From assembly GCF_021155765.1 (NCBI RefSeq), contig NC_060115.1, positions 4,278,001 through 4,342,000 on the forward strand: DNA of 64,000 nucleotides, in the 5' to 3' direction. The stretch's first letter is position 1. Each line of letters starts with the position of its first letter. The notes beneath the pieces were generated by a model. It was not told the DNA's origin, ran no database searches, and saw only the letters and a list, made by a program, of their open reading frames with translations. This stretch comes from Diprion similis (lineage: Eukaryota > Arthropoda > Insecta > Hymenoptera > Diprionidae). This document shows positions 28,806-56,178 of the stretch, piece after piece. The translations under genes were made by a program, and so were the position numbers.

Positions 28806-31479
28806 TTTTCTCACCTCAACAACACGCTAATAACGAACTTCAAACAAAGACTAACCTCGAATCGCGACAGTCATAGTCTCCACGTGACCGCCATAACACG
28901 CTCGTTCTGTGTTCGCGCGCGCGCGAAAATGTTAAAGGTTCTCCAGGTATGAAAATGATTGCATAATAGGATTCGCCGGGTTCGCAACTTGTAAAGTTGA
29001 ATTATAATTATACTAAACCGGTTCGCGTTTCTACGAGAACCTTTGATGAGACCGGTTCGACCCTGAGAACTTTTCGTCTTTTTTTCTACTCTTAATCACG
29101 TTTCAACAACTCAACTCATAATGTTGTCGTGCTGTTGCCAGACCACGTGTTCTCCTAAACTCCTATCCTTCGTTTCTAACCGAGAACAAAGACGATAGTT
29201 TCGTCTTCTGTGCAGCAGGTTTCTAACCGACGACGACGAGATGAGAAACAGAGCGACTGTTACTTGATGAGCAAGTGCCAAGTTTTAGTTCACACGTCTT
29301 TTAACAGGTATCACTACTGGTATGCAGTTGATAATACAGCATCACGGCTCCACGTGGTTCTTTCATCAATTTTATGTTGTAGCAAACGCGTTATAGATAT
29401 CGTTCGTAATTTTGTACATTCTTTTTTTTCACTAAAAAATTAGTCTCACCGTACCGAACGCATCGTGAGTGTAAAATTTATTGAGATTTATTGAGATTTC
29501 GAATTTATTAGTTTGGGGGAAATATGCATGAATTCTTCGGTCTTGATTCAGTGTTTTTAATACGGTAAAATTAAAGCGCTGGTTAAAGTAGACACAATTA
29601 ATCGATATCAATCAGTGTAACGTAAAATTAATAATATATCTGTCTGCGTTTTTTGTACATCAACTGAAAATAAAGAATCCCGCATACCTGTTGAAAGGAT
29701 AATTTCATTGTGCAGGGAAAAAAAAAGAGTCATTCTAATTCTTTAATTACTTATATTATTCCAAACTCATGTGTTGAACTTTGAATTAGTTGTTAATTCG
29801 CCACAGATTACTGCAAGTTAAAGTGGTACAACAATTAATACATCCAACAATTGGACCGCACATAATACATTATAAATTTATACTTCACAGATACTATAGA
29901 CTCAAGTTATTTGTGTGGGACCCTGAGATGAGCTGGTGACGTATACGCGGATGTGGCGGGGCATTGATGGATTAGTTACACCTGACCGCAGTACGTACGA
30001 CGCTATGCTGATGCTGCTTCGTATAGTACATATAGCTCTTCATCCATGGTGTTTGGGACACGGGATTCTCTAACAGGGAAATGTCTTACAGTTTGCAACA
30101 CGCATTACTGGGATTAAACAGTGATAGATCTGCAGGAGTAATAGGGATCGAGGACTTATTTCCGAGGTATCGAACCGGCATGTCCTTGTGTAGGTGAAGC
30201 TTGACTTGAGCTCCAGAAGAACAGAAGCCAATCTGGGAACGGCTGTGCCAGCTGGAACGCTGCAGAGATGCTTCGGGCGTCGCGAGTCCCTGAGATAGAC
30301 GTCGCGACGCCCCCACCCCCACCCCCACCCCCGTCCACGGCACCCTCAGCCATCCTCAGCTCACCCTCCTATTGCCTCCTGCAGCTAAACTGATTATAGT
30401 CGAGCGCGCGGCCCCTCCGTCTGCTTAATTAAATTAGAAACTTACAATCATCTAATGTTATGTCGACCTTGCCGCTTACTTTTGTAAGTACAACTGCAGG
30501 GCGAATTTACACCACTGAGTGGGTAGTCGAGGTCTGTATAGGTGTTCTCGCTTCTTTTAATATCCGCGACGCTGTTCAGTACTAACGCTATGTATACCCA
30601 CTTACCCGTTTTTCGCAAATTACTTTCAGGCATAATTTATGCATGATACACGGTATAATATGTATAATACAAGACACGCGTAACTTGATCATTGATCGAT
30701 TATGATTTTTCTCATGCACAATCAATTTGGATTTATATAATTCGATTTTCACGCTTGATCTCTAATTTTTTTTTTTTTTTTTTTTACTATAGTACATTTT
30801 ACTAGTACATTCCTCACATAAACCGAACTATCGCGTTGATAATATAGTACAAACTCGATCCAACGATCATGCCAGAGAATATATCGATGGTAAAATTAAC
30901 TCCTAGCGATTTTTCATGTGACTCGGTTAAAAATTTATCGTCGCAGTGGTACGCGATGCCACGGACGTTTGATTGACTGCATCCGTTGATTAACGAACAT
31001 TATTGGAATATATACCTGCACCTGCATTGATGAAACATCATTCGGATAGCGCCGTTCCATTGTGAGCTTTTATTTCACCCCTTGTTGCTCGTTTGCTTAC
31101 CGCCCGGTAACACGACTCACAATCAGAATTGAAATACTACGTTCCTGTGAACGGTGGCTATAGTACTGTATTATCCAATACACTTGTGTGTATGTTCAGA
31201 TATGTGCGTATATATAGGAATGTAAATGGATTTTATTATCCCCGAACTTTGAGGTAATGAAAAATTTCTTTATTTCTTTAATTAAAGCGTTACATAACGC
31301 GGTGCGTTTGTGCAATCCAATAAAAATATTGTGTTTTCACAATTACTAATTACATTTTGCATTATCCAATTGTTTTAGTAGAATATAAAAATATTACAAC
31401 CGAGTTATCCGTAATCCTGATTATCTGGCCGTCTCAACATTAATAACAAAAATTCTGTGTGGACAGGAAACCGTGATGA

Positions 31480-31510
<31 letters not shown>

Positions 31511-34453
31511 CCAGCAACTCAATTGTGCATGCGGCCTCTGAATCTGCATCCTGTATATTTGCGATGACCCGAACGTACAGCCATGAACGGAGTAAATTTT
31601 CGACGGGTGAAGATGAATGCATTTCCCGAACAGAAATCCGAACGGCGTCCAGAAATATTAAATTGTATTCCTACGGGGCGTCAAGTCGAGGGTGGCGAGG
31701 CGAGGCGAGGCGAGGCACCTAACCAATATTTAATCAACTTTGGAGGAGAATATTATTCTCCGGACAAATCAAGGACATATGTAGCAGACCGCCGCGCCGC
31801 GTCCCCTTTTCCGTCATTTCGCCGCGTGTGCAAGCGCGTCTGCAGAACGGCAGAAAGAGCAAGAGAATTGCAGAGAATTTCCGTGCGGGGAACCCCGGCT
31901 GCGGCGTGCGGCGTGCGGCGTGTGCCGCGATTCCCTGGGGAGGGGATTCCCTCCCCGGGTTCCGGAGTCTCGAGCAAGCGCGCAGGGTACACACGCGGGA
32001 GCGGCGATCGACTCGTGAGAACAAGTGCAATACAAGTGTCGCACCGTTCATCCCTTGGGATAATACGGAAGGTAGAAGAAGAGCGAAATGGGGGTGTGAT
32101 GAGCCTTTCCGTCTACCTGATCCGTGCAGCGCGCAGTCATGCCAACCACCACGCAGGATGGGCAATAAAAATTTTTACGCTCTTATTTATCGTCAATTTT
32201 TATCCTCGAGCAAACAACTAAAGCGAGGAAATTTCATCACAGAACCTAGCGCGTCTTATATGGATGAATATATACTCCGGACGACGAAACCCTCGTCTAG
32301 TTTATCCGGCAGAAGATTCACGATCAGGTATTTGGCAGTCGAAGATAGGCGGACGTATGTACCTACTATACCCATTGGTGTAGGTACGGTTTGGATCGAA
32401 AGAACGGCACTCTTCCTGAACAAAAGTTGAGCTCAATTATTGACCCTATCGAACGTCGAATCTCCCGGGCCTACCGGGAGATCTTGCCCAATTGGTTCTG
32501 TACGTTTTCACCCCCCAGCCGCAGCGACGGATTGTTCCAAAGTACGTCCTGCAGGTCAACGGTATAGTAAATAGTTCACTGATTTTTAGAACTTGTCGTG
32601 TTTATGTAAAAACTCGACCAAGTTAAACGGTAAAAAAAAAAAAGAAGCACAAGAAGATTATTTTATGCTTTTATTTTCTGACTTACTCGAAGAAGAAGAA
32701 GGAGAAAACAGAAACAAGAAGTAAGAGAATAAGAAAAGAGCGGCGGGACTCGGGAGTGGATCGTATATAAATCATTCAACTCAGTCTTCAAATCCTGTCA
32801 ATTTGTTAGAGTAGCTCTGGCATTCTGGGAAAAGAATGAACTTGGCAAATCGATACACATATCCCTCGCAACGGTGCAGAAGCGTATGTAGATACGGATT
32901 CGAACTACTCATAATCCAAATACTTGCACCAAACAAATTTTAGACATTATTTACTGCATTTTACTAATTCTGTTCTGCACAATACGGAACTTCTCACGGT
33001 CATACTAATTGAGTGAATAAAGTATAAAACGTACGTCGATGATTTCATCAAATCGCCAAAAAACGAGGCAACCCCTTAACGCATTCATTTATTGCATACA
33101 CTGCATTATTAAATATCAAGAGCTGTGTACTGTAAGGGATGAAAGTCGAGCAAAGTTGTCGGATCTCTTACAGCCAGCAGTGTTCGATTCAAAAGTAATT
33201 CATGGTACCCGCCGTATAAAAACATTAAAGGTTCTTCCGTAGAGCTTGAATTTGGCATCAATACCAGCAGATGTTGAAAAATTTCGTCGCTAGTTTACAA
33301 TTTATACAATTGTCAAAGTACAGATTGACCGTTGTCCCAAACGATCGAAACTTGAAACGGTAAAAATTCACCGAACTTTGACAATTCTGAATTTTAACAG
33401 GCTTGTACCCGCGCGTTAAACTGTCCTTAAAGTACAAAAATCTTTTAAAAATCGTTGTCAAAAACAACAAGTATTTCGATACAAAGTTTAATGTTCTGGG
33501 TACCTCGCCCAGGGGTCACTTACGACAATTGATCGTAAAATCAAGGGTTGTGTGTTCAAAATATTAGCTGGCTCTGCACCGTCGGATGATAGCGTTCATT
33601 TTGACATGATGGTGGTCGCGCACCTCAGTAGAATCCTCACCGCGTCGGCTCGCTCCTCCATCACTCCGTTTGTCGCTACGCCGCGGAGGTCCTCCCGAGG
33701 GTGGCGGCATCCCCCAAATTCCCCTTCTCCCCCGGTCCTGCAACGGGGATGGTGGGAAGAGGGGGGTGGTGGGCGGTCGGTGCCCGTTTCCCTCGAGGGT
33801 GAGAAATCCGGGGGATGGAGCGGAATGGCCGTTCGCCGTAGGTGCGGGGGTGTGGGCGCCCCTCGAGCAGCGAATCCGGGGGCGTCGAGGGCCGCCGAAG
33901 CCATGCCGCTTCTCCGTCGGAAGCCACGCCCTTGCGCACCCTTTACACTGTTATTGAATTAAGCTTATCATTTGATTTTGAGGAAACCCACCAGTCGGTT
34001 GTCTCGGGTGCTCTTAGCGGGACGAAAAACTTGGCTATCACGGATAATCGCAATAATTTGATATCGCCTGATCCGATTATAGAGCGAGAGTATAACCATC
34101 GCGGGCGAATTGTACTGCAGCGCGAGGAGAGGTGGTGGGTTTAACATCTCCTCGTGCAGGCCGCTCGGCTCGGCCAAGGTCTTGGCCTGGCCTTACCTCG
34201 CGATACCTACTCGCCGTCGACCCTTAGGTCTGCCCGTCGGGGCACCGGGTCGGCCTCGCCGGCCACCTCCGGGTCGCGTATCACGGCTGCAGTCGAACCG
34301 ATAACCCGGAAACGTCTCCGATGGCGGGAAAAATCGGAGAGAAAAAATAAGCACGGAATTGCCAGAGTCCAGAGGAGGTAGGTGCGGAGGCCTATACCTA
34401 GACCGAGGAGACGACGAAGCAGCGACACCGCGGGAACCGGAAGTGCTCCGAGC
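28806..34453. other. Intergenic between divergent XPC (-) and Phox2 (+)
   Basis: No gene recognised. Near 28.8-29.3 kb lies the presumed XPC promoter (GC-richer, with a CGCGCGCGC run at 28914-28923). From about 31.7 to 34.4 kb GC and CpG content rise sharply, creating long overlapping open frames on both strands (31583-32221, 31828-32430, 33552-33962, 34193-34477) whose Arg/Ser/Pro/Gly-rich translations look like GC artefacts. The last part, to 34453, should be Phox2 5' UTR and promoter. A 23-base poly(A) run lies at 31488-31510. Confidence 0.5.
31488..31510 (+). repeat. Poly(A) homopolymer, 23 bases
   Basis: Uninterrupted A run in intergenic DNA; no associated retroposon body recognised. 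Confidence 0.8.
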
Positions 34454-37400
34454 ATGGACTACTCTTATCTGAATCAAGCAGCGGCTGCGGCCGCCGCCGG
34501 TTTCGAGGCCTCAAGCTGTGCCCTGGCTGCCAGTGAAATGCAATGCGGATACGGCGACCTCAGCTCCTGCTCGCAGATGAGTCAGGCCGCTTATCGCTAC
34601 ACCGCGGCCAGGGCGGCCGGATATCCTGGGAACGCTGGGAACCCAGGAACCGGCGGTGCGAACCCCCTGGGGCCTCATCATGGCGCTCATCCTCATGCCC
34701 ATGGGCATCATGGGGCCCATGCTACTCCGTGTTCCGTTATGGCTGCCCGCAGTCAGGATGTTCATCGACATGCTGCCTCCATATTTCCGTCGGCGATCAA
34801 CCTTCAGGGTGAGTTTCGAGTTTCGAGGCTAAGCATTCTAATGTTTACTTCGCACTGTATACTTGCGTGCTTGACTTGGTTGTTGCGTATAGCGGACGAA
34901 AGTTGGCTTTCGCATTAGCATGTTAAAATTGACGTTTTAATTTCCGTAAAACTACATATTTTTTTTCGTTCTTTCGTTAGTCAGTCGCAGAGACTGCGAC
35001 CTTCATTCGGTGTAAGAAATACGGTCAGGTTTCTTTGTTTCGCTGGAAAAATGATTTTTTTAAACCTACTATCGTCACTAATTCACCTTATTTGGAATAT
35101 TGAAATGCTTTATTAACATACTTAATAAATATATAACTGTTTTACCGAAATAACCAATTTCTAAGCCATCGAATCATATTATTAACAACTCTCTAACATC
35201 GTTTATATCTCACTCCTGTAAGAGATTCCAGTGTTTTTCTTACCTACAAACAGATTCAATCGATTCGTACCTATAAATTCTGATATTATCCGTAAAATTC
35301 ACGTTAGTTTCATATCTCTCAATTATCAGTTTTCAAACTCAAGTAATTACCATGAGATTCAGTTACTGTGAAAGTATATCAAGACCACAGAATTATTTTA
35401 CAGAGATTCACGAATGAGATGTTCTTTTTATTTTTGATTCGTTAAATCATGCAAGTCGCCAAATTTTCATCGCGAGGGCCTAGACGATGAAAAGTGTGAG
35501 GTGTAGTATGTATCTAGGTATTATACCTACGTCCACATTTTTGTGAATGAGCCAAGCCTCGAACGTTGATTTTTTTTTATGTTTTCTTATAACCTGGTGG
35601 TAAGAAACTAGTTTCAACTGTTCACAAGATTTATACATATATAGGTAACAATACGCGTGAATAATAATTCCTGCAAATTCATACGCCAACTTTTTCGCGT
35701 AGCCAATAAATCTGTCTGGTGTATTCTCAGCTGGGATTTTCGACGCTACGTTATTCTACAAATTTCGTTTACTAGACAGATTGTAAAAGGAGAAGGAAGA
35801 CCGGCGAATTTCCACCGTCCCAAAAAACTTGTACACGTGCTTGAAAAGCGTACCAATATATATATACACGTAATTTTTCAGACATATCTTTTTTTTTTTA
35901 CTTACGATTCATGTTACAATTTACTCGATACATATCGGTGTGTAACGTGCTCGTCAATCTCCCGTTGAAAACTCATCGATACGATAATAATATAAAGTTG
36001 AGAAACACAGCGACGGATCAAGTACCGCCGGATAAAAATTAAGTTACATCCGCCAGTATTTCAACAGAGAACTTCTAGCTTATAGCGTATAGTTCACAGC
36101 TTGCGTCACCCTGCACGGAATTATTTAATAATAAATTAATAAAAGTGTGTTAGAAAAAAAAAGAACAAAAACAAAACCCCCCTAAAAAAAAAATCAAGGT
36201 GTTTCTTGTGCGAAAAAGTGGCAGACAGCCAAGGCGTAAAGGTGTCTCATTAAATTCCTGCAGAACGATCAATCTACGTAATACGTGAAATTGATTTTTC
36301 GCAAAGATTATTCGCGCGAAATCAGGACCAAGAGAAGAAATGATTTTTCTTATTTGTTTCCCTGATTTGGCAAGCACTGCACATCGGCTTATCGTGCCAC
36401 GAGATTGGGGTTACGGTGAAAGAAAATTGGGGAGAAAAGTCTGGCTATAAACACGCGGCCAGTGCAGGTTCTGATTGTGGCATTGTTCGATTTATCCGAG
36501 GGCAACGTTGTTGCGGATTTTGATCACGTTCACCAGAATCCAGGCAGCGACGCGACGGCGGCAAATAATCATCGACGGGTTGTTGCCGATCAGTCGGTGA
36601 CGCGTCTTCGTTTTCGACTTTTCTAATTCGCACTGCAAACAATACACGTACCTACTTGATTTTTCACCTATGCATGTGAATATAACGGTGAAACGGGGCG
36701 CGGCTAAATCCGTAGACGAAATATTTTTGTCGTTGAAAAAATATACATAGTTGGATCGTTTCAAGGTCGCGAAAAATGTATTACGTGGCGTGGGTGCGTG
36801 ATAAAATGTATCGCGAATAGTTTTTAAGTTGCACACTTACGCAGGTATACACATGTGTTTATTTGCCATTTTTTCTGCCGACGAAAAGTAAGCCGCACGT
36901 TTTCGATATTTCTTATTCTGCACTGTTTGACCGTGCAGAGATCATTCGAATAAATTTATACAGTAATGTGAATAATAAATGCGAGGAAACGGTTCAAGAA
37001 TATAAATGATTTTCTATTTTCAACGATAAGACTAATACGAGCGGTTTCTACTATATTTTCTTACCGCGAAACTTGTGCCAAACTGTATTTCGATGTATAA
37101 TTATGTTTGCAAGTTTATGTAGTAAACAGATGCGAGATTAATCGTTCGACTAATAATATCCTGCTTTGAGAATAACTAGAGGGAATCTTATAACACAAAT
37201 GAATTTTCGTCAATTGAGCATATTTATTATTTCACCGCGCATTAATTGAATCGTACGTGACGTTTCTGACCGATTTCTGCATTTCGTTATAATATTCTCT
37301 ACATCTGTCAAAATCTCTGCGACTGGTAATTCGCTGCGTTATAATTCATTGTACTCTAACAGAAATATCTGGATCATGTTAATAAGACTGACTGTGAAAC

Positions 37401-40400
37401 GTTCACACGTGCGTTTGTGAAATGGTATAATAATAATTCCCACGCTCATTAAAAAGTCATACCAATGATAATAAAATCAAGAATACACTATGTATATTAA
37501 ATACTACATTCGATATGAAAAATGTAATCGTAACCAAACTAAATGTGTGCAGATAAATGATTTTCACAAATCCCAAAACAATCAAATCCACTTATCGCGT
37601 GTACACCCGTTGATTAATTAATAATTACCAAAGGCTACAGGCTGCAAGATTTCGGATAAAAGATGTGGGCAGATGCCGAAAGGAGAAAAACGTAACGAAT
37701 CGGTAGTAACCGAATTACATATAAAAGGATTAGAAAAGTATACAGGAAGCGAGTGTACAGAAAAAAGATAAGGGGGGAAAGAATTAGTAGAAAAATAGAC
37801 ACTCAGCCATAAGAAAAAGGCTAATTGTAGGAAAGAAGAAAAGCACCGGTTTTCCGGTGCGAGCCACGTTCTTCCATTCTCTGCCCACCCTCTCCCCCCC
37901 TCGTCCCTACTCTCTCTCTTTCGTTCGCCATACGTCTTGCAAGTCCCACGCATTTTTCTTTTCCCTTCCCTCCTCTGAAAGCTTTCTGATCCACCTCCAG
38001 CTTCTGGGACGCGCAACCCCGACGGCGTCTTGCAGGAGTCGGCGGTTATGCACGTCCCTATGGCTACCCCTAAGTAGAGGGGGGGGGGGGAGATTCGCGT
38101 GAGTAGCCAGCTTGCGACGCGGTGAAACAGTAGCGGAGAGACAAGATGGCAGTGAAAATCAATGGATGGCCCGCTCTCTCAGTCATTGCTATGGTTACGT
38201 CCCTCGCTCGCAGAGCCCTCACGGTCCTCACAGTCCTCTTCGCTGACTCTGCTGAGCTTACAGGACCGCTACACCTCGGTCCCTGCTTGGTTTCGCCGCG
38301 TACCGCGCGGTTCTCCCGCTGAAACTTTTTGTGCACACAAAAGTTTGCCTTGCTTCCAACCTCCGATGTATACATAGATATATGTGTATATATATATACA
38401 AATCTATGAAATGTACAGCAGAGAAAACCGAGAGGAATTACAGTAGATGTATAGATTATGGACTCTTCTCTGTCACCTCTATAAATACATCGTTATCTGG
38501 AAATTTTTAAATCGTCACGCCATTCGTTGAATTGAAAATTGAACGAACAGCTTATCGGTTCGATTAAGTCATTGAAATTCTGTTTTCATTAAGGCAATCG
38601 GATGTACGGTCTCGAGACGAGTATACTGTAATACGATAAAGAACGAAACGTATGTGTGGTACCTATGGTAGGAATTATTGCCATATTTAACGATGTATGT
38701 TTTGTTTTTTATGCAGGCGGTTTGGGGTACAAGGCGTACCCGGGGCACGACGGGCTCGCCGAAAAGAGGAAGCAGCGTCGGATACGAACGACCTTCACCT
38801 CGGCTCAGCTCAAGGAACTTGAACGAGCATTCCAGGAGACTCATTATCCGGACATCTACACGCGGGAAGAAATCGCGATGAAGATAGATTTGACGGAAGC
38901 CAGGGTACAGGTAAGAGGAAAAATGATGAGAAGGCGCGCGAGAGACAGCGAGAGAGAGAGAGAGATAGTTGTTAACTAATTTCTGTTTCTTGTAAAAGTG
39001 AAGTGCGCTACAACTGATATTGATATAGATATAAGCAGCTCTTGTACAGATACAGTTTTGTTTTTCTGTGTTATGTTGTTAACGATTATTTTGGAAAAGC
39101 TTTATAGTCATACACTGCAGCGATAGTGTGTCAGAAGCGTTGAACAGTTTAATCCGTCAAGTCGGGACGCGAAGTGCCCATGAGGACGAAAACGGGATGT
39201 AGTAATGCAATTACCAACGGCCACTCACCTCCCTTTAACCAAAAGGGAACGTGAGCGATAGGATGCGATGCGATACTGGGTTGAGGAAGGAAGCGAGCTA
39301 CGGGAAAATAATTACTCCTCATTCCTATATCTTAAAAGTAGTAGATCAACTTTTCTTCCCTCTGCATCGATATCTTATTTTAACATGCTAATCGCAAGTA
39401 TCAACATTATACCCTTTCGTATGAAAAACAAAGAAAAATAAACCAAAGAAACTTTAATTCCAATTATTCATCACTTAACATAACATTCTTGTTGAAATTG
39501 GATCAGTTTTTAGTCAAGTGAATCCGTTATCATCTCGTTCAATGACCTATGAAAATTCTATGAGTAAGTTCAGCCAACGGTTGCATTGCGCCTAAATGAT
39601 GCAGAGCTCTGATGAGCTAAGTTTAGCATGGCGGGTATATTCGATCCACTGTCATTCAATCGCATTATCGTAATTGTTGCCCGCACGTTTCTCGGTTCTT
39701 GAATGTCGCCTGGTATCTCGTCTGACGCTTTCGTATCAGCTTGTACATAGCTCATTATCGCGTCAATCAACCTTCGACGAGTCTACACCTGCATTCCAGT
39801 TGAAAATGAGGATAAAACGAGACTTCGATCTATCCACACGAGGACAACTCATCTTCAGTGTCCATCTATCCATCTATCCATGAATCTATCCGTCATCAAG
39901 ATGCCGGTTCGAATTCTCTCAATCGTGGAGTGAAAACGATAATTGTAACCGATGCTCCGAGAAGATTAGGGCAAGTAGTAGTTATACGTGACCAGCTCGT
40001 AGACTATTCTAATTAATTAAGCTCCATAATTAACCCTGAAATAACAATCAATTTTACAGTAGTTTGCGGTGCGGAGAAACCGCCCACCGACCGCGAAGGT
40101 AGGCCTCGAGTTATCCTTTGTTGGCGAGAATTTCCTAGGTGAGGATGAGGTGAGCCAAGCCTCGTCTGGGTAGGGTTCGGTTCGTTTCACGTCAGTTTGG
40201 CTCAGTCGGAGAGCCGAGTTTCGGCTTGGGGTTTCGCATTGGCTTTGGCTTTGGGTTTCGCTTCGCTCTGGGACTCCCCCGTTTCCTCCTCATCGGTTCC
40301 AGCTCCTCTTCTCGTTGGCTCGATTCAATCCTGCACCTCCGCACGCTGGCCCGTTTACTCGATAAATTTTTCCGCCATTCCTCGGCCCTCCACCCTCCTC

Positions 40401-43400
40401 GTATTATTCGGCTCTTCATCCTCGCACTTTTCCCCTCTTTTTACCTCGCCAACACCAAGTTTCCTCGGTCTGCCATCATCGGCTCCTGCAGCACCAAAAT
40501 CTGAAACCCCTTAGTTTTGCGAAATTTAAATTGAAAAGGAAAAAAAAAAAAAAATGTACCACCCTCGACTAAATTCAACCATTCATCGACGCGATCAGCT
40601 CCTCATCTTTGCATGCGAAATGTGGATCTACACTGGTAGAAAAATTGAATTAAACATAATGTCCCAGCAGATCTATTTTATGTTTGTCGTATTTATTACG
40701 TTTCTGTTAGTAAATATAACGCATAAATTTTACGTAAGTTTCTTTTTCACTTAGAGTAATACATTGAAAAATTGTTAAATCAATCCAAAAATTTTAGTCA
40801 ACCTGCTGGGACATTTTTTTCTAATCGTATAAAGTTTATAGCATGAATCCGAATCAATGTGCGCAATATATTTTCCATTCAGCACCCCGGGATGTAAATG
40901 TCCCGTGATGGGAACGCGTTAATGGATCATACAGTATATTATAATTCTTGTGAACAGCATTCGACTGACGGGTGATTCAGAACTCTGCATGCAGGCCCAT
41001 CGCAAGAGATGAGAGAAAATCCGTACCTACCCCGCGGTATGCTTCGAATTGCACACGCGGCGGGGCGGGGGGGGGGGGGGGGGGGGGCAGCTTAGAATTG
41101 ACGTAGTAGTTGGGACACGAAACAAACCCCTGTGCAACAGCCACGATGTCACGGTATACGACTTTCGGTCTCTCCGTGGGGAGAAACCAACCCCAAGTCC
41201 CCCTGTTCCCCTCGAGAGACAATTGCTCACTTGTATGCCCCACGATGACTGCAGTATCGTATGTGTGCACCTCGTCTAATTAGCTGATTACACACATCCA
41301 TATAGTGAAGATATTCAACAGCATAGCTGCAGCGAAGGTTGACGGAGATCGAGGTTCTTTATAGCTTAATTGATTTACGTCGAACAAGTTTAAGTCGATT
41401 ATTGATCGGAGATAAAGATTTTTTTCCTTTAACTTTACAAGGTCCTTTAGAGTACCTTTAAGATAGGTATGAAGCTTGTCGATCGACAGATACCTATGCT
41501 CGATATTTTTATCCATTATTCTTATTTTCACTCTATATTCGTGCGGTAATTAGTTATGAGTTGTGTAACGTTGCCCTTAAGTGAGCTGTCGAGTGTTTCG
41601 GGGATAGAAGGTGCAAGTTTATTTCACGCGGGGACCGAGACGGTGGTGGTGGTGGTGGTGGTGGTGGTGGAGGGTCATGGGTTGAGGGAGCCGAGGATGG
41701 TGGGCTGATACACAGGGGGGCCATGCAGAAGCGTACCCTGGTAATTGCCGGAGCTATGTAGATCCACTTACAGTGATTAAAAACTGTCCTGCTGAGTATC
41801 ATTTCGACCAGCACCAGTTCCCAGACCCAACCCACCAACCATCACAAGCAAACCCAGCAGCAACAGCCGGAAGGGTCCTAGGAAACGGTTCTTCTCATTC
41901 AACCAGGAACGGCGATTCAGAAACATCCGCTTATTCCTCTATCCATCGCTTTTCCATCAGATTCAACTTAATTTCTTCAGCTATCTTAATCGCGATTATC
42001 GTTGAGTCAGAAATTGCAGTTACTACACGTTTTCCTGTTCTTTTCATTGTTCTCAAAAAAGGAGGAAGAAAAAAAAATGTACTGAGGTGAGTGTACCAGT
42101 TATTGACACGCTTAGACCCAATTATTCACCCTTTTATCTTCCAAAACTATAACTATTGAGGGCACTAATTTTGAATTTCTTGATGACTTAATCCAACTGC
42201 TTGAGAGTTAGACACTGAAATAGCTATTTATGTGGCATGCCCGTAAAGCGCCTATTTTTTTGGCAAGGATAAAGATTTCAGGATGAGCTGAAGGCGAGCC
42301 GGAAGCGAGTTCTGAAATTATCCGAGCCAAAATACGGTTTACGGGCATGCCACATACAATATTTTTTACGGTATGGGCATTGAAAAGCAAAATGAAGAGT
42401 GAGGTTATGTCGCGATCTGTTCGACGAAGCTACTTTATTCGGCAGTTTGGGATGCGCACTTCGAACTGCGCATCAAAACTGCGGAATAAAGACTTTATTC
42501 CGCAACTTTGTTCGCTGCCGTATAAAGCGTCACTTTACGGAACGTAAACTGTCACAAAAAGTGAACTTTTCAATGCCCATGCCGTAAAAATTTATTTTTT
42601 GGTAAAATTGAAAATAAGGATCAAACAGATCCCATAAAAAAGGTCAATAATGGGACAGGATCAATGACTGGTACACTTACCTTAGTCAAGATTCCAGAAT
42701 TGTATCATCTCAAAAATCTCGGAATTCACGAAATAATCACCCGAATAAAATCGCGTGTGTATGTATACCTATGCGAATCGCTTCACGCAATGTATCGCAC
42801 AGCACCCATACAATATACATATATACGTTTGGCCTCGTAATTGGGCGAGGAGAAGGCGTTAAACGGGGTAATTTTCTCACGTGAACATAAACTACGTCAC
42901 AGTGCGTATATAATATACCAACCGTGCTACTGTATGAAAATTTATTATTTCGGACAGGTAAATTCGTCTTGCCCACCTCTCGCGAACCACTTCCGCGAAG
43001 TGTTAACGTAGATTAATGCAGAATCGTGTAACTCTTCTAAATAATACCTCCGCGGCTATACCGTGCCGTGGGGTGTTAATTAAGATTCCAGGGTTGCGTG
43101 GCTGGTAATAATTGGCGCGTTCCCAATTACCCGAAATTTCTTGATTTTTAGTTCACCAGCTCCTGTAGGCAACCGTATACATATACATATATACATATGC
43201 TCGTGTACCTATACAGGGTTAAATGAAACAAATTTCAAGTCTGCCGTGCATGCGCTAACCGTGACGGTAAACGCAATCACGGCGTGATCTGTGATCAACA
43301 TTTTGGATGGTTGTAAAGTAAAAATAAAAATTAAAAATACGTAAAAGTAGAGACAGAAACTGGGAAAATCAGTGACATGCTGTCGCGTACGAAAGGGTCA

Positions 43401-45393
43401 AACCTGTAATCAACGAACACGTGTATCTGTGCAATCGAGAGAAAACAGGTAGATCAGAGTGGAATTGGTATATACGTAAAATACTCACCGCCATCCCACG
43501 CTTCGACGAATCAACGTCATTCGATTAATGAGACATGTTACAGACTTTTCCACACGCCGCGCGTTGAGCAAAGGAAATAGTTGTGATAAAAAAAAAGATA
43601 TGTTAAATTAATGATTTTATCGTCGTGTTCCGCTATCGCATATTGGAAGCTGTATCGAAATTCCAGCTTCAGCCTCGGACTTTGCCGCGATGAGGTGCGC
43701 AGATGTCCCGGTGTTTGCTTTGTTCATCGGAACAAGGGTCGGCGTTGAGCGTCACCCCAAATAAAGCAGCGATTAAATATTTATCCTTGGCAAGGACATC
43801 TGTCATCCCCCTTCCCTCCCGAGTCCTGGTCTTGTTACATTTTATTTAACCAAGTATTTGTTTAACATTAACACCCGAACAGTCCCAATCCCCGGCAGCG
43901 TGAATACACACACACGTGCCGTTGATACACTGTGGACCTTATAGTGTGCAGACCACTGGCTATGCAAACATACGCATATGTCAACCCTGAGTCGATTTTG
44001 GGTCTTAGTTCAGGTAGCAGGTAGATAAACAAATTTACCATCATGCCGGGTATTTAGTAAGTGTATATATATATATATATATATATAATGTACACTGTAA
44101 ACTGTGTCAAAGTGATTAAATGGGTGTAAAGAATGGGGGAAGAAACGTAAAAACAGGTGAAACGCTACAATAATGTTCAAAAAATTTTTCACCCTTTACT
44201 ATACAATCGCACCATCCGTGTAACACGTTCCATTTTCAACCAGTACTGATTATGGAACAAAGCCGCGTTCGGACGGGGAATTGCTCGAGGTTCGGGGAGC
44301 TGCAAGAGTTGATAAAAATCTAATAGCAGTGTTTGTCGTCCGGAAAAGGCAATCACGTTCATCATGCTGCTCGCCCCCCTCCCCCCACACCTCCTCGTTC
44401 GGCATCATCCCCTCCGCGAGAGCGGCAGGACCACCTTTCGACAGGTTTGCCGGGGGTGGCTTGGAGCCGAGTAGGTAGTAGGTAGTAGGTACCTATGTAT
44501 GTACATGGAACACTCCGTGTTCTGTATGTGCGAGGCCTTCGGGGGTGGAATTGAGGGGAGTAAAACCCCGTTACGCCTGGTCAGACAAACGGGAAAGCAA
44601 ACAAATCCGCTACTTTAACATGCAGGTCACCGCCGTTTCGTTTGTTTTATTTGTTATACATATACTACACTATATTTTATTTGCCAAATAGAGCCAATTA
44701 CGAGGTTGCATGTGTGTGTGTGGAGGGGGCGGGAGAGGGTGTAGGAACAAACCGGAGAGAATCGTGGCACCCGTGACGAACACAATCAGTGGAAGTCGTT
44801 TTTTGCACGCATTTTATTTCCATAAATTTTCTATCCTGTTGCAACATCGACATGGTTGTCGTTGTTTTTTTTTTCACACTTTCGTTGGGAGTTTAGCGAA
44901 CGACTCGCATAACTCTTTGTCTCGTTCAACATGATCTTCTCGTTACTGAATTTCCGTGAAATATTGGTGCTTCCAGGTTTGGTTCCAGAACAGACGTGCC
45001 AAGTTTCGGAAACAGGAACGTCTCGCTCAGCAGAAATCAACCGGGCAAGGTGGAGTCGGGGGTGACAGCGGCGCCTCGAGCCCAGTGGCAGGAAGTGTCA
45101 AGACTGAGGGACGCTCCCCAAGGAGCCCGGCAACTCCGCCAGTAAATTCAAACAGCGTCCACTCAACCGCAGAGGTTAAACCGATCTCGAATTCGAATTT
45201 GGGAAATTCGAAACACTCGAACGATGGAACTGGAAATTTGCAGTCCTCGCCGATCGTCCGTAGCGGAGGCGGAGGCGGTGGCGGGGGCGGGGGTGGCGGG
45301 GGCTGGGGATCATGCAGCCCGAGGCCGTTCTCCGCAGCCCTGCCACCCTACCTCCTAGATCCACTGCCTCTAAAAACTGCAAATCTTTACTAA
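34454..45393 (+). CDS. Phox2: Phox2/PHDP paired-like homeobox transcription factor
   Basis: Q50 paired-like homeodomain transcription factor; vertebrate PHOX2A/B specify autonomic and visceral neurons, and the Drosophila relative is PHDP. Three exons: 34454-34808, 38717-38910, 44977-45393; 966 nt, 321 aa, phases consistent (G/GC split codon, then a clean cut). The homeodomain spans about residues 138-197: [40 protein letters not shown], then [18 protein letters not shown], with the second intron falling after homeodomain position 46, the usual site in paired-class genes. Gln is at position 50. The N-terminus MDYSYLN plus GDLSSCSQ matches the PHOX2B start (MEYSYLN, DFSSCSQ), which sets it apart from other paired-like genes. 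Low-complexity tracts: Ala-rich near the N-terminus, Gly/His-rich ([16 protein letters not shown]) before the homeodomain, and 13 consecutive Gly at about 280-292. No paired domain or OAR motif seen. The ATG is chosen by this homology. Confidence 0.94.
34809..38716 (+). other. Phox2 intron 1 (3.9 kb)
   Basis: No nested gene recognised. It begins GTGAGT and ends ATGCAG. The stretch 37.8-38.4 kb is C/T- and GC-rich and makes frames on both strands (37618-38016, 37857-38102, 38070-38377) without motifs; such a patch could be regulatory. Confidence 0.55.
41067..41087 (+). repeat. Poly(G) homopolymer, 21 bases
   Basis: Uninterrupted G run following CGGGGC in Phox2 intron 2. Run length may be an assembly estimate. 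Confidence 0.8.
41642..41670 (+). repeat. (GGT)n microsatellite
   Basis: About nine GGT/GTG units in Phox2 intron 2. Confidence 0.9.
42081..42686. mobile_element. Composite MITE-like element with outer TIRs and two internal hairpins
   Basis: Outer ends are inverted: 42081 ACTGAGGTGAGTGTACCAGT, then TATTGA, matches the reverse complement of the sequence ending at 42686 (ACTAAGGTAAGTGTACCAGT, then CATTGA). Inside are two adjacent palindromes. The first is 42230-42355, with arms ATGTGGCATGCCCGTAAA and its exact inverse. The second is 42363-42590, bounded by TTTTTACGG.ATGGGCATTG, then AAAAG, and its near inverse. The second contains smaller nested inverted motifs (GATGCGCA...TGCGCATC at about 42449-42472 and AACTGCGGAATAAAG against CTTTATTCNGCAGTT). 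No transposase frame; a non-autonomous DNA transposon is inferred. Confidence 0.7.
44062..44087. repeat. (TA)n microsatellite
   Basis: About 13 TA dinucleotides in Phox2 intron 2. Confidence 0.9.
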
Positions 45394-48737: not shown

Positions 48738-50541
48738 CTAGGCCATGGAGAGAGTACCGGCACCCATACCGAAGCCGACACCCTTAGGACCGAAGTTTCT
48801 TCCGTAGCAACTGCGGCAGTAGATATCGCCGTCAGGTCCGTCGTTGAGGTTCGTCGAGTCGAGGGAACGACGGCAATCCGCACAGCTGAAGCAACGCTTA
48901 TGCCAGACCCTGTTCTTAGAGATCATTTGTTCAGCGGCATAAACGGAGTATCCGCAGCGCGAGCATCCGTTTCCGTCGGTTCGCTTTTGACCAACCTTCG
49001 GGTTTGAGTCGATGCTGAAATTGTTGTTTTTTGTTTTCAATTGATTTCGATTTTTTTCTGTTTTTTTTTTTTTTTTTTTATCGTTTGTTATTTAGTATTC
49101 ACAGATTAGGTTCAAGCAGCCCCTTCATATTTACGAAATTATTGACTACTTACTAAGACGGTGCGTGATCACCGTTCGTTGACACGAGAGTCGGAGTGTG
49201 TCCAAATCCAAATCCTTTCGGGCCAAACAGTTTGCCGTAGCAGGAACGGCAGTGGATTTCCTTGTCGGGACCGTCGCACGCCAGCATCGAGTCCAACGGT
49301 CGGTGGCATTCGGCGCAGTTGAAACACTTCTTATGCCACATCGTGCCCTTGGCCAGCTGTTGTTCAGCCGCGAAAACCATCCCGCCGCAACGCGGGCAGC
49401 CCTGACCTGGGGGTGCCTTGATCGAGGTAGTGTCTGGGTTGTAGAACGGACGGCTGGAGGAGATCTCGTCCTCGCTGTAAGGGGTAAATGGTCAGCATTA
49501 ACATTCGAGGATTTCTTCGGCTATAGATTTATCGTGTATATATATATACTCGGTAACTCACGTGAGACCGTCGGTCTGGAGGAAACCAGAGCCGCACGCG
49601 AAGCCGTAACCGTGTGGTCCCCATTTCTTGCCGTAGCAAGTCTTGCAGTAAATGTCTTTGTCTGGACCGTCGCAGGCGATGATGGAGTCGAGGGTCTTGC
49701 TGCAGTCGTGACACTTGAAACACTTTCTGTGCCATTCGCTGCCCTTGGCTAGTACCTGCTCGGCGGCAAATACCACGCCTCCGCAACGTGGGCAACCTTT
49801 GCCAGGTGGCGCCTTGATGATGGCCGTATCGATCACGGTCGTACGGGGAGCGGCGTCACTGTATGTCACAAAATTCTTCATTGTAGACATGAGTTTACAG
49901 TGCGTAACGCGAACGTTGATGTTAATACTGTATCATTTCATGTTCACGGTTCAACTTTGAACACTGGATGAAAACATTGAGGGAGCCAAGAACGAACGAT
50001 CGGTTTATCTACACGGAAAATTTTACACCACGACGTCATTCTCGCACTTCATCGTGCGAGAATGAAGTAGCGATGATGTATCGTATCTTCGGAATATCTA
50101 GTAACGTGACGCGATCTGAAGGGGAAAACAAAATGAAAATGCAGAAATCCAATGACCGGCGAGAAAGTGACGAAGGTATAACGATTCAAGGTATGTGGAT
50201 TGGTTTTTATATGAGAAAAGACAATGTATAACAGATTCTGTGTAAATCGTGACGTAGAGATGACGAGGTAGGTATGTATGTACACGTGAGGTCAATTGGC
50301 AGTATTAGCGACAGCGGCAACAAAGCGTTAGAGAGCAGAGGCACGAGGGAAGATTAAGATCTGAAGTTGAGGCGTACCCCTCGTCTTCGATATCGCACTG
50401 CAGGCCTAGCCAAACTACTCCAGCGTGACCGATACCGCGCGGTCCAAATTTCTTCGGATAGCAAGCTGTTAAGCAGATATAAGCGCATCATATATAGTCA
50501 GTGTATAAAAGCTGAGGGAGGTGGATTTTTCTGTTGATTTC

Positions 50542-50577
<36 letters not shown>

Positions 50578-53500
50578 TCATTATTCAGATCCTTCCTCAG
50601 CCAGCAACCCACCCGTTGGCATAGCAGTCACTTTGAAGAGCGCCGCCACCCTGACCGTATCCGTAACCCTTCGGACCATATTTCTTGCCGTAGCACACTG
50701 AAGAGAATACAGATTAAGGTTTGCTTTTCTTGTCAATACTTCGTCGGCAGAGATACGACATCGCGTTAAACATCCGTACACATGTTGATCGTTAATTTCT
50801 TTGTTACATGCTTTATTTATTCATTTCTCAAAGGGAACGTCGTCGATAGACATTTAATGCACGGCTCGTTCAACTTGGCGATATCGTATCCTCGACGAAG
50901 CGAAGCCGAAGCATCAACTGGGGATCTTCTTCTTACCTTTGCAATAAATATCTTTGTCGCGACCTTCGCAGCAATTGACAGAGTCCAATCGTTTCGTACA
51001 GACGGAACACTTAAAACATTCCCTGTGCCATTGCTACATGAGACACAAACGGAATAATGATTGTTAGTCACTGAATGTCCACTTTTCGGGGGGCTAGTCA
51101 TGATCAGAAGATTATACGTATCGTGTATATTAAATCGGTACACATGTCGTTGTTGTTAAAACTTTTGGCTCAGCTACGAGGGTTTGTCGGTGTTGTTTTT
51201 TTTTTTTTTTTTTTTCTTATTTCGTTTCTCGTTTTATTAATTATGTGCGAGCCATACAACAATGACGGAATTGACAAATTTCACGGACTTGATTCGTGCT
51301 GTTGTGATTAGTTAAGAAACTGCTTGCCCGCAGCTCTTCTACGATGGTACTTCAGGTATTTCACAATAGTTGGATTTTTTTTGTTTCAATTCTGCATTCT
51401 CGTTAACAATAATATTAGTATTACGAGTATTACTAATATACCTAATTGATTAGTCCAGATCTATCGACGTGTATATACATTACGAATATTACATATATTT
51501 TTCAAAAAGAAAAATTACGGGAGAACGAGGGAGAAAATTTTGTTGCAAAAAATACGGGTAATACAAAACGAATACGACGATTACAAAAAAAAATAAAAAA
51601 ATTTTTTTTTTTACAAACGCGAACGACTTGAGTCCCAGTCGTCGTGACTGTGTGTGTGTGTAAAAGTTAAACGAATCACGGTGTACATAATCATGTGAGA
51701 CATTTTGAAAAAAAAAGACGGACAACCGAATATGCAGTACTACCTCTACAGTAAATGTCTCGATCTGGTCCGTCGCAATGTAGGGTAGAGTCGAGGGTGC
51801 GCTGACAGATCTTGCACTTGAAGCATGCCCTATGGTAGCCCTGGTCACGAGAAGTGATAACAACAACAAGACCGTGAGTGGAGGGCGTGGTTTTTCTTTC
51901 TTCCGATCTCTAGCAGTCCGTATAGGCGGTTTTTCTACGATTCTCGATATTTTTTTTCTATTCGTCTACTTACCCTTCCGCGAGCCAGCATCTGTTCGGC
52001 AGCGTAAACGTAGCCACCGCATCGCGGGCAACCCTCGCCTTCGGGAGCCTTCGCTATGGCGCGTGGTTCCAGCACGGCCTGAGATCCTCGAGGGCTAAAA
52101 ATACAATCGTCTATTGGTATTTCACCTCGGGGGCAAATTTGTAAAATGGTAAAAAATATGCGCGTCAGTTACATAACGTGTGTGCCAAATCAAGTCAAAC
52201 CTCGCGATTGCGGTGGGACGATTTTATTTTGAATTCCCTGTCTTTATCTCTCTCTCTCTCTCTCTCTTTCTCTCTTTGCAAGTAGTGAGTTGACTGAAAT
52301 CGTATTTACTCTGACTTTTTGGATTTAGCGAGATTTGACTTGGCTTGAGCTTATCGATTGGCAAACAAAGCAAGTATCAACAGATAAGTTTCTACGGAAG
52401 AAGAAGTAGAGTAACGGGACGAAGAATATGAGACAAGGAATAGGAAGTGTGAGATTAGAGTAGCGAGATGTGGTAATTGAGAAATGACAAGACGCGTGTA
52501 ACAGCGGAAAAATACTGGACAAATAACAGTTTCAGAAAAAAGAAAGAAAAACTACCAAGAAAAACTCAACGATTCTACTGGTGAGAAAAAAAATTCAACA
52601 TAGAAAAAGAAAAAAGAAAGAAAACATAATAAAAAAAAATCAACTTTACAGTCGAAACAGCGAAAACCACGGAAACAAACGAACAAAATGAAAAGAAAAA
52701 AATGTATGCAACTCTTTCTGTAAAATGAAGAGACCGGATGTTTCCCATGTATAGTTTGATGATATCCGGTGTAATTATATGCACTGCGAAATTCACGTAT
52801 CGTTTGGGTTATGCAATATATTGTATAAAAATTATCTTCGTGCTGCAGCGGTCCTAAAATTAAGCCTGCGAACATGCGTTTGCGATGCGTTAATAAACGT
52901 AAAGATTACGGTAACAGCTGCGGATAAATGTGGATGCTAGTGGGTATTAAAAAGTTTTTTTTATTATTGGTTACTGTGTTAAAAAGAGATCCCCAACCAC
53001 GCGCGATACGCTACCGCCGAGCCCAAGAGGATAGCCGAAAAGCAGAGCTGATAATTACAGAGCAAAACTAAACCCGTCGAAGGTTGAGTTTAGCTGCAGT
53101 TATATAGCCGAGGCGGTTGGCCGATTGGGCAGGCGGGCAGGCAGGCAGAATTGTTAGGGGGGTGGGTTAAGGGGTTAATGAGCAAATGGTGTAACATTGT
53201 ACATTGGTAATGGCGGTGGTGTCAAGAATGAATGAAAGAAAGAAAGAAAGAAAGCAAGAAATGAGGAACGAAAGACCGAGAAACAGATGGAGAGCTTAAG
53301 GACGAGAATTGGTGATACTGTGAAAATGGGAATGAAAATAATAAGTGAGAGAATAAGATATTACATGGGGCAGCATGCAGGCAGGAAAAGAGAGTATAAT
53401 ATATAGGCGGGCAAAGCAAAGCGTCACGCGGGCGCAATACTCGGTTGCTCACCATATAATCGCGTGTGTGCGTGTGTGATCGAATATATCAATGGCTGAA

Positions 53501-54116: not shown

Positions 54117-56178
54117 TGTAAAAATTTTGTTCGAGATGAAAAAAAATAGAACGTGAGAGAAAAAAAGAACAAAACAAAATTCGACGAATCAAAAAGTATA
54201 CAGAGAGAACAATCGAATGAAACGTAATACCTGTATTATGTATTATTATATTATTATATTGTATAATAATTATAACACAAAATGTTTTATCAAATTGGAT
54301 GGTGATAGGTAAAATTAAGAGAAAGAATAAAACGGAAAACTGGTGTTATACGTTTGAAACTTTTGGCGGTAGTAGTGGCGGTGGTGGTGGTGGTGGTGGT
54401 GGTGGTGGTGGTGGGGGTAATATAGAATATATATGTAGAAATTGAGGGGGGGGGGGGGACATGCGGTATTCTTCAATTTGGATACAATTATTGTCAGTCG
54501 TTTATATATATAAAGGTGTAAAATTATATGTCAAAACTCATAATCATGTGCATTATAATTCCGTGCAGAGAAGTTAATCTGCGGGAACGCAGCTACATTC
54601 AAAATATGTATAAGACATATATGTATAGTATATAAGTGCAGAACTCCATGTATGATGTATATTATTATATGAAAACAATATTCATCAAATGAGTGTATAC
54701 TGCAGTATATATATATATATATAGAATACAACGTCGTGTAGGATGATGTTCACGATATGTAACCATCAAGAAAGAATATCACATGCACGTTTGTTCTCTG
54801 TTCAGTGTCAGTTGTTGTTGTTGTTATTGTTGTCACTGTAACTTTGGCGTAATTTTTTTCTTGTTGTTTTTTTTGAAGCTTTTGTTTTTGTTTTTTATTC
54901 TCGTGGTTTGTTTTTTCTAATTGTTTTGTTTTTGGTATGTACAGGGGGACCTCGAGAGAGAGAGATGGTTCGGGGGTAGGGAGGGCGACCGCACTCACTC
55001 GGAAGTCTCCTTCAGGTGTTCACCGGAGTCCATGGACAAGCATCCGGCACCACCACCGAATCCGTAACCCTTGGGGCCAAATTTACGCCCGTGGCAGTTC
55101 TTGCAGTAAAGCTCGTTCTCGTGCTCGGAGCAGTTTGTGGAGTCGAGCAGTTTACTGCAGAGCCCTGCAATCCAACATATACTCGAATTTAAATTATTAA
55201 GCTCATTCGATTCGACAATTTTTACCGCGGATAATAATTCGTTTCGTCAAACGTTAGGGAACTCTAGAGCGTTCGGGAATGTATATATATATCAATTATC
55301 CTGAGGATTAAGTTATTGTATAAACGTTGTTGCATTCTACGTTGTTCTATGTTGTTGTATATTCTACGTTGTAGAATTCTAAAATTCTGTAATAACCATT
55401 TTTTTTCTCCAGATGATTCGCTACGTTAACGTTGAAGTTACTAACTTCAGCTTGTTAGATTATCGAGAGGAAAATTCTTGTCCAATTGTCGCTTTGCTCA
55501 CTTGATGAATTTAGAGAAGAATTTATTTATCATCGATAGTGAAATTCTCGTCTCTTGTGGACGTCTCGTTTTGCTTCTCTGCGCTATATAAGAATTTTAC
55601 GCGATAGCTGAAGAATATTGGAAACCAATGAGGCATAAATTTCCACAGAATTGCACTTAACGAATGCCGTTATCTCGACTGAGAATTCATTACGTTATTT
55701 TTCTTTTTACGAGCACAGAAGTAAACATCATCCCTTATGCGTGACTCAGATATTTCTTATTTTAGCGCATAGCTTCGGACTATAGATAAACGCGACATTA
55801 GATTGTCAAAGCCAACTTCGATGAGATTTTCCACGCGGCATAAATTAGTCCCGAATCTCTATCTCCCCTTAGATTCTATCGCACCAGACGAGAAAATTTC
55901 TTTGACGAAATTGATCGCGATCCCATCCTGCATGGATCAGGCTGTTCCCCAGGTGTTTACAGACTTGGAACCACTTCGCGTTCCGGTATTTGGCTTTGGT
56001 TTCCGGGTGTAACGAGATACTCGCGACAGAGTCGTGAAAGTACCGCTCATATTATATACTCACCGCACTTGAAGCACATCTTGTGCCACTTCAATCCACC
56101 GGCGACGCGCTCCTCCGCAGCGTAGACAGATTTGTTGCACTTGGGGCATTTCGGGTGTTCGACTGGCTTGAAAGGCAT
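48738..56178 (-). CDS. Mlp84B: Muscle LIM protein, five LIM domains (Mlp84B type)
   Basis: Cysteine-rich-protein-family LIM protein; Drosophila Mlp84B sits at Z-discs of striated muscle and maintains sarcomere stiffness. Eight coding exons in the full form: 56064-56178, 54999-55164, 51974-52094, a 97-nt exon (50937-51033 or 51744-51840), an 85/88-nt exon (50613-50697 or 50378-50465), 49562-49858, 49154-49474, 48738-49014. With 97+85 the total is 1479 nt, 492 aa (Drosophila 495), phases consistent throughout. Each of five modules has CPRCG/CPKCN (CSRCG in LIM5), a WHK/WHR-C-F-C centre, a DSTN/DS-like loop, a YC..CYG (CHG in LIM1) end and a glycine-rich [10 protein letters not shown] tail. LIM1 starts [20 protein letters not shown]; linker 1 continues [20 protein letters not shown], as in Drosophila. 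LIM5 ends [10 protein letters not shown] at TAG 48738-48740. An acceptor just 5' of the ATG (exon start 56188) implies an upstream non-coding exon. Confidence 0.95.
50378..50465 (-). CDS. LIM2 tail exon, variant E2 (88 nt)
   Basis: Reads [18 protein letters not shown], then [11 protein letters not shown] plus GG; acceptor TTAACAG, donor GTACGC (weak). It keeps the last zinc cysteine and the K-K-F-G-P-x-G-x-G frame of the family but loses the QGGGALQSD tail. It enters in phase 1 and leaves in phase 2 like E1. Alternatively it is a terminal exon: unspliced, the frame stops at 50305-50307 after about 24 more codons. Confidence 0.65.
50554..50576. repeat. Poly(T) homopolymer, 23 bases
   Basis: T run (poly(A) on the gene strand) immediately downstream of the E1 stop codon (50597-50599) on the coding strand, between tail exons E1 and E2. 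Confidence 0.8.
50613..50697 (-). CDS. LIM2 tail exon, variant E1 (85 nt)
   Basis: Completes LIM2 with [20 protein letters not shown], then QSDCYAN, almost identical to the Drosophila tail. Acceptor CTTCAG; donor GTGGGT in phase 2, joining as GG/T to the LIM3 exon. If the donor is skipped the frame reads six codons more and stops at 50597-50599, a possible two-LIM end. Confidence 0.88.
50937..51033 (-). CDS. LIM2 middle exon, variant D2 (97 nt)
   Basis: Reads [18 protein letters not shown], then [14 protein letters not shown] and one base; acceptor ATGTAG, donor GTAAGA. Same length and phases as D1. The WH.ECFKC and CCE residues resemble the single Drosophila Mlp84B exon more than D1 does, so D2 is probably the ancestral-type version. 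Confidence 0.87.
51744..51840 (-). CDS. LIM2 middle exon, variant D1 (97 nt)
   Basis: Reads [18 protein letters not shown], then [14 protein letters not shown] and one base; acceptor GACCAG, donor GTAGTA (weak). It enters in phase 0 and leaves in phase 1, exactly like D2, supplying five of the eight zinc ligands of LIM2. It is the nearer of the two to the preceding exon (intron 133 nt). Sequence differs clearly from D2, so it is not a recent copy. Confidence 0.85.
54085..54113 (+). repeat. (GAA)n microsatellite
   Basis: About nine AGA/GAA units inside the LIM1-LIM2 intron; similar interrupted GAA repeats precede it. Confidence 0.9.
54380..54412 (+). repeat. (GGT)n microsatellite
   Basis: About eleven GGT units inside the LIM1-LIM2 intron. 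Confidence 0.9.
54995..56178 (-). CDS. Predicted single-LIM isoform (Mlp60A-like, 94 aa)
   Basis: If the exon 2 donor (exon end GA, then GTGAGT at 54993-54998) is not used, the frame reads GAG TGA and stops at 54995-54997. Exons 56064-56178 plus 54995-55164 then encode 94 aa: one LIM domain, [20 protein letters not shown] and a short acidic tail. This matches the size and layout of Drosophila Mlp60A short form (92 aa). Whether a poly(A) site serves this form is not evident from sequence; the downstream 2.9 kb intron has room for one. Predicted, not demonstrated. Confidence 0.55.
55165..56063 (-). other. Muscle LIM gene intron splitting LIM1 (0.9 kb)
   Basis: Begins GTGAGT and ends TTGCAG on the minus strand; no other feature recognised. 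The plus frame at 55803-56012 is chance. Confidence 0.6.

What the first reader, a model, noticed from the sequence alone, without database searches (positions are those of the whole stretch)
50378..51840. Two tandem pairs of mutually exclusive exons inside one LIM domain of an Mlp84B-type gene
The second LIM module has two alternative middle exons (D1 51744-51840, D2 50937-51033; both 97 nt, phase 0 to 1) and two alternative tail exons (E1 50613-50697, 85 nt; E2 50378-50465, 88 nt; phase 1 to 2). Including both members of a pair shifts the frame, so choice is enforced by phase. D1/D2 carry five of eight zinc ligands, so a choice rebuilds the zinc-finger surface; E2 swaps the glycine-rich tail. 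Four LIM2 versions are possible. From memory, the Drosophila gene has a single version matching D2+E1. I know of no description of such exon pairs in muscle LIM proteins.
Basis: partly seen in the sequence, partly recalled or inferred. Interest (0 to 1): 0.8.

Follow-up and report, generated by a model that had tools for sequence, protein, structure and literature searches.

The report
Swappable exon pairs in muscle protein
An insect-type muscle gene carries two versions each of two neighbouring exons that build one zinc-binding domain, so splicing could make up to four forms of that domain; it is a credible new case of a well-known trick in insect muscle genes, still without RNA proof.

Summary
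A minus-strand muscle LIM protein gene has, in LIM module 2, two middle exons (D1, D2; 97 nt) and two tail exons (E1, 85 nt; E2, 88 nt), with the stated coordinates and AG/GT borders. All 4 D/E choices give full five-LIM proteins (493/494 aa); 6 of 6 tested mRNAs with both or neither member of a pair meet early stops. All 4 versions meet the LIM zinc consensus. D1 and D2 differ at 43 of 96 bases; simulated neutral drift reached their protein similarity in 0 of 20,000 runs each way, so D1 is unlikely to be an old relic; E2 is less certain. D1 and E2 have weaker donors than D2 and E1, but the constant LIM4 exon's donor is weaker than E2's, so 'D2+E1 default, others regulated' is only suggested. 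Intron pairing did not exceed shuffles (10 of 10 pairs). An in-frame stop overlaps the donor after LIM1, allowing a 94-aa one-LIM form, so the gene combines features I recall from fly Mlp60A and Mlp84B. No RNA or second species was reachable. Ten paper searches (listings capped) showed no such exons in muscle LIM proteins. Probably a new member of a known kind.

The parts
56064..56178 (-). First coding exon: ATG and N-terminal half of LIM1 (phase 0->1)
54999..55164 (-). Second coding exon: rest of LIM1 and its Gly-rich tail (phase 1->2); donor GA|GTGAGT overlaps an in-frame TGA (54997-54995) that ends a 94-aa one-LIM form if the intron is kept
51974..52094 (-). Exon C: linker and first two zinc ligands of LIM2 (phase 2->0), common to all LIM2 versions
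51744..51840 (-). D1: alternative middle exon of LIM2, five zinc ligands, weak donor (GAG|GTAGTA)
50937..51033 (-). D2: alternative middle exon of LIM2, five zinc ligands, strong donor (AAG|GTAAGA) and CTAAC branch-like site at -34
50613..50697 (-). E1: alternative tail exon, last zinc ligand and Gly-rich tail of the usual kind
50378..50465 (-). E2: alternative tail exon, last zinc ligand; tail hydrophobic then acidic in place of the Gly-rich run
49562..49858 (-). LIM3 exon (phase 2->2)
49154..49474 (-). LIM4 exon (phase 2->2)
48738..49014 (-). LIM5 exon with stop codon TAG

Best explanation
These are two functional clusters of mutually exclusive exons in a muscle LIM protein gene. Exon C is joined to D1 or D2, and that to E1 or E2; transcripts with both or neither of a pair are out of frame and expected to be destroyed, so the coding phase enforces the choice. 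D2+E1 is probably the default, giving a standard LIM domain with a Gly-rich tail; D1 and E2 are probably chosen through splicing regulators in certain muscles or stages. D1 keeps the zinc ligands but changes residues around them; E2 keeps the last ligand and the basic KKxGPxG stretch but replaces the Gly-rich run with a hydrophobic and acidic one, which would alter what LIM2 binds at the Z-disc or in the nucleus. Shown: exon anatomy, phases, ligands, and protein-level constraint on D1/D2 in the past. Inferred: use in RNA, decay of wrong forms, default versus regulated choice, and the effect on binding.
For: Exact borders, lengths and phases; 4 of 4 D/E combinations open, 6 of 6 tested double or missing inclusions broken. 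D1, D2, E1, E2 found by profiles not trained on them, D1 and D2 also by Pfam. D1 and D2: 55% nucleotide and 53% protein identity, third positions 41%; in neutral simulations with the same 43 changes 0 of 20,000 runs in each direction kept the observed protein similarity and 0.02% and 0.065% kept the five ligands. E1 versus E2 score 48 against a best of 27 in 5,000 shuffles. LIM consensus in 4 of 4 versions. Donor scores D2 6.6, E1 4.6, E2 2.0, D1 0.1 (weights recalled, approximate). Best PDB matches are CRP1, CRP2 and muscle LIM protein.
Against: No RNA evidence and no second species. D1's donor is weak: 8.6% of the 536 GTs of the region score as well or better. The donor argument for a default is soft: the constant LIM4 exon's donor (1.0) is weaker than E2's (2.0). 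E2 beyond GPRG is only weakly like E1 (shuffle P 0.024). Absence of stops alone is no proof: 20% and 26% of neutral runs of D had none. The simulation puts all change on one copy and cannot exclude a recent loss of use. D1 and D2 are less alike than either is to LIM3, so a simple recent tandem copy is not shown. No intron pairing above shuffles.
Confidence: 0.72

Rival explanations
1. D1 and/or E2 are decaying exon relics that are no longer spliced in.
For: D1 has the weakest donor of the nine scored and E2's is weaker than E1's; E2 lacks the Gly-rich pattern of the other tails and has the weakest profile match of the four.
Against: Both are open, keep AG/GT borders, phase and ligands; neutral drift did not give D1's similarity to D2 (0 of 20,000). 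A recent loss of use cannot be excluded from one sequence.
Confidence: 0.1
2. D1 and/or E2 are alternative last exons: read-through after D1 or E2 meets a stop in the intron and gives shortened proteins ending in LIM2.
For: Weak donors of D1 and E2; the frames of D1 and E2 run a short way into the intron before a stop, to 51691 and 50305; the gene already has such a stop after LIM1.
Against: Matched phase at both ends of each pair would be unneeded for terminal exons. Poly(A) signals in these two introns were not examined.
Confidence: 0.08
3. A variant of the best explanation: the choices are coupled. Only two LIM2 versions are made, the inner pair D2-E1 and the outer pair D1-E2, the second skipping both inner exons as a block.
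For: Order C-D1-D2-E1-E2 is nested; the inner exons have the higher donor scores and the outer ones the lower.
Against: All four joins are in frame; nothing tested shows coupling; a constant exon (LIM4) has a lower donor score than E2.
Confidence: 0.25

Closest known systems
Mutually exclusive exons of insect muscle genes (troponin T exons 10A/10B, Mhc)
   Same: Tandem homologous exons swapped inside one protein region; muscle-type choice is described for TnT 10A/10B (PMC13322953, passage), and adjacent clusters not separated by constant exons for Daphnia Mhc (PMC3228551, passages).
   Different: Here the swap lies in a zinc-binding LIM module of a muscle LIM protein; usage is unproved.
Drosophila Mlp84B and Mlp60A
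   Same: Muscle LIM-only proteins (PMC7928361, passages). The five-LIM form here resembles Mlp84B and the one-LIM form Mlp60A (fly sequences and LIM counts recalled, not fetched).
   Different: One gene here can make both forms, and LIM2 has paired exons. PMC11081514 (passages) states a single protein isoform for both fly genes in a legend, yet an Mlp60A isoform switch in its text.
Vertebrate CRP1/CRP2/CRP3 (CSRP)
   Same: LIM domain followed by a Gly-rich region; best PDB matches.
   Different: Vertebrate CRPs have two LIM domains (recalled); the E2 tail lacks the Gly-rich pattern.

Membership tests
CRP/muscle LIM protein family | LIM consensus CX2CX16-23HX2CX2CX2CX16-21CX2(C/H/D) | tested here: met
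   4 of 4 LIM2 versions and LIM1, 3, 4, 5 (pattern from PMC7238268, passages)
CRP/muscle LIM protein family | Gly-rich region right after the LIM domain | tested here: inconclusive
   My pattern G[YFVI]G[FY] is met with E1 and in the four other modules, not with E2; E2 has 6 Gly in its last 24 residues, E1 8
CRP/muscle LIM protein family | Expression and Z-disc place in muscle | not testable with these tools
   No expression data
Mutually exclusive exons | Neighbouring homologous exons of like length with the same phases and intact splice sites | tested here: met
Mutually exclusive exons | Both or neither gives a broken frame | tested here: met
   6 of 6 tested combinations with both or neither member of a pair had early stops
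Mutually exclusive exons | Transcripts hold exactly one member | not testable with these tools
   Needs RNA-seq or long reads
Docking/selector RNA control of exclusive exons | Complementary intron elements beyond chance | tested here: inconclusive
   10 of 10 intron pairs within controls: duplex z -1.63 to +1.01, 40 shuffles each; no longest helix above the best of 12 shuffles. The most notable, a 12-nt TTGTTGTTGTTA/TAACAACAACGA match between the C-D1 and D1-D2 introns, is low-complexity and within shuffles. One genome only, so conserved pairing could be missed
Exclusion by steric hindrance | Intron between the alternatives too short to splice | tested here: not met
   D1-D2 710 nt, E1-E2 147 nt; that 147 nt is long enough is general knowledge

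The most novel reading that the evidence does not exclude
LIM2 is a switchable docking module: a splicing programme turns it from a standard LIM/Gly-rich unit (D2-E1) into a different binding unit with a hydrophobic-acidic tail (D1-E2), coordinated as an inner/outer pair, in a gene that also makes a one-LIM form; in flies the same variety would be divided between two genes, Mlp60A and Mlp84B.
Probability: 0.18. Interest if true: 0.6.

Novelty: new member of a known kind. Interest (0 to 1): 0.42.

Why it matters
Several contractile proteins of insect muscle are tuned by splicing. If used, these exons would extend that tuning to a muscle LIM protein and let two versions of one zinc-binding domain be compared in the same protein and animal.

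Tried and rejected
Relatives: viral contigs scanned twice, genome contigs once, plasmids once: 2, 0 and 7 stretches matched a pattern, none confirmed as a relative; no match. These collections hold viruses, prokaryotes and plasmids, so this says nothing about insects. Intron pairing: not above shuffles. Places of Rbfox-, Bruno-, HOW- and Muscleblind-like motifs in the five introns were listed without an expectation, so nothing is concluded from them. Papers: ten searches, one of them for six peptide strings of these exons (0 papers). The listings were capped (20 of 3,571; 20 of 438; 15 of 341; 15 of 317; 10 of 175). Of the listed papers I looked at passages in twelve (the paper came from a reference list); none of what I saw described paired exons in a muscle LIM protein. 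The Drosophila mutually-exclusive-exome paper (10.1038/ncomms3460) and PMC3716849 are not held. A fire ant paper names 'Mlp84B-like isoform X1' (PMC6315859, passage), so further isoforms are probably annotated in databases I could not see. I recall, without a call, a report of short and long Mlp60A isoforms in Drosophila. Structure prediction was not run: the spliced LIM2 is not a contiguous reading of the window.

Full report
What is there. The gene runs on the minus strand from the ATG at 56178 to the stop ending at 48738. I count ten coding exons, of which D1/D2 and E1/E2 are alternatives. LIM1 is split over two exons, LIM2 over C, D and E, while LIM3, LIM4 and LIM5 are each one exon. All four D/E choices are open from start to stop: 493 aa with E1 and 494 aa with E2. 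Six combinations with both or neither member of a pair were tested and 6 of 6 have early stops; not every possible combination was written out. A seventh, leaving out C, D and E altogether, stays in frame and would give a 391-aa four-LIM protein; the LIM3 and LIM4 exons are likewise phase 2-2.

Is it more than chance? Profiles trained on LIM1, 3, 4 and 5 of this gene were run over the 2,779 window ORFs of at least 15 aa. They found D1 (1.6e-16), D2 (4.3e-16), E1 (1.1e-10), E2 (1.9e-4) and exon C (1.8e-12), none of which was in the training set, and otherwise the training modules themselves; the next hits are at E about 0.9. At this sensitivity the window holds no third D or E exon. Pfam LIM matches D1 and D2 each alone. 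The LIM consensus is met by 4 of 4 LIM2 versions.

Relic or live? D1 and D2 share 55% of bases and 53% of residues; first, second and third codon positions agree at 66, 59 and 41%. Simulated neutral drift with the same 43 differences reached the observed protein similarity in 0 of 20,000 runs in each direction, and kept all five ligands in 0.02% and 0.065%; absence of stops alone would be met in 20% and 26%. The simulation puts all change on one copy, so it speaks for long constraint on both but cannot exclude a recent loss of use. E1 and E2 align with score 48, against at most 27 in 5,000 shuffles, but this rests mainly on the CYxKKxGPxG start; the tails alone give P 0.024. E2 is thus the less certain member.

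Age. D1 and D2 are less alike (53% of residues) than either is to LIM3 (D1-LIM3 62.5%, D2-LIM3 65.6%). Either the duplication is old or the copies diverged fast; on 32 residues I did not try to settle it.

How it would work. The distances between alternatives (710 and 147 nt) speak against steric exclusion. Complementary intron elements did not exceed controls in 10 of 10 intron pairs (duplex z -1.63 to +1.01; longest helices); with one genome a conserved pairing could still be missed. What remains is phase plus regulated splice-site choice. Donor scores, from approximate recalled weights, are 6.6 for D2, 4.6 for E1, 2.0 for E2 and 0.1 for D1; acceptors have similar pyrimidine content. This suggests D2+E1 as default and D1 and E2 as regulated, but the constant LIM4 exon scores only 1.0, below E2, so the scores are no proof. 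Because the two exons with high scores lie inside and the two with low scores outside, a coupled inner/outer switch is possible but untested.

What changes in the protein. D holds five of eight ligands and E one. D1 has Tyr where D2 and the four other modules have Trp before the His ligand. With E1 the tail fits the pattern G[YFVI]G[FY] as in the four other modules; with E2 the KKxGPxG stretch stays but that pattern fails, net charge of the exon goes from +2 to -1, and a hydrophobic-acidic run appears. Closest solved structures by sequence are CRP1, CRP2 and muscle LIM protein.

Which gene. An in-frame TGA overlaps the donor after LIM1, so keeping that intron ends a 94-aa one-LIM protein, with AATAAA at 54899 and 53598 among candidate poly(A) signals. 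One gene here can thus make one-LIM and five-LIM forms that, from memory, resemble fly Mlp60A and Mlp84B. For flies I saw only passages: a legend states that both encode a single protein isoform, and the text of the same paper reports an Mlp60A isoform switch (PMC11081514).

What is known. Exclusive exons are described in insect and crustacean muscle genes (PMC13322953; PMC3228551; passages). Ten paper searches did not turn up such exons in a muscle LIM protein, but several listings were capped, the library lacks most subscription papers, and supplements were not available; a fire ant paper already names an isoform X1 (PMC6315859). I therefore call it a new member of a known kind, probably real, unproved in RNA.

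Noticed in passing
window 54995-55164 (minus): In-frame TGA overlaps the GT donor after LIM1, so intron retention gives a 94-aa one-LIM protein; AATAAA signals follow at 54899 and 53598.
   Followed up: partly
window 49154-52094 (minus): C+D+E, LIM3 and LIM4 are each phase 2-2 units; skipping C, D and E leaves a 391-aa four-LIM frame.
   Followed up: partly
window 34382-45390 (plus): Paired-type homeobox gene, by reading in at least three exons; Pfam finds the homeodomain at 38632-38976 only, not in the ORFs at 34382-34915 and 44950-45390; looks like Phox2 from memory.
   Followed up: partly
window 25644-28826 (minus): XPC/Rad4-like DNA repair gene by reading; Pfam finds Rad4 beta-hairpin domain 1 above its cut-off at 26341-26715 (domain 2 below it), nothing in 27051-28826.
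   Followed up: partly
window 14471-15940 (minus): G-protein alpha subunit gene, two pieces matched by Pfam.
   Followed up: no
window 4864-5541 (minus): Nucleotide-sugar transporter exon (Pfam).
   Followed up: no
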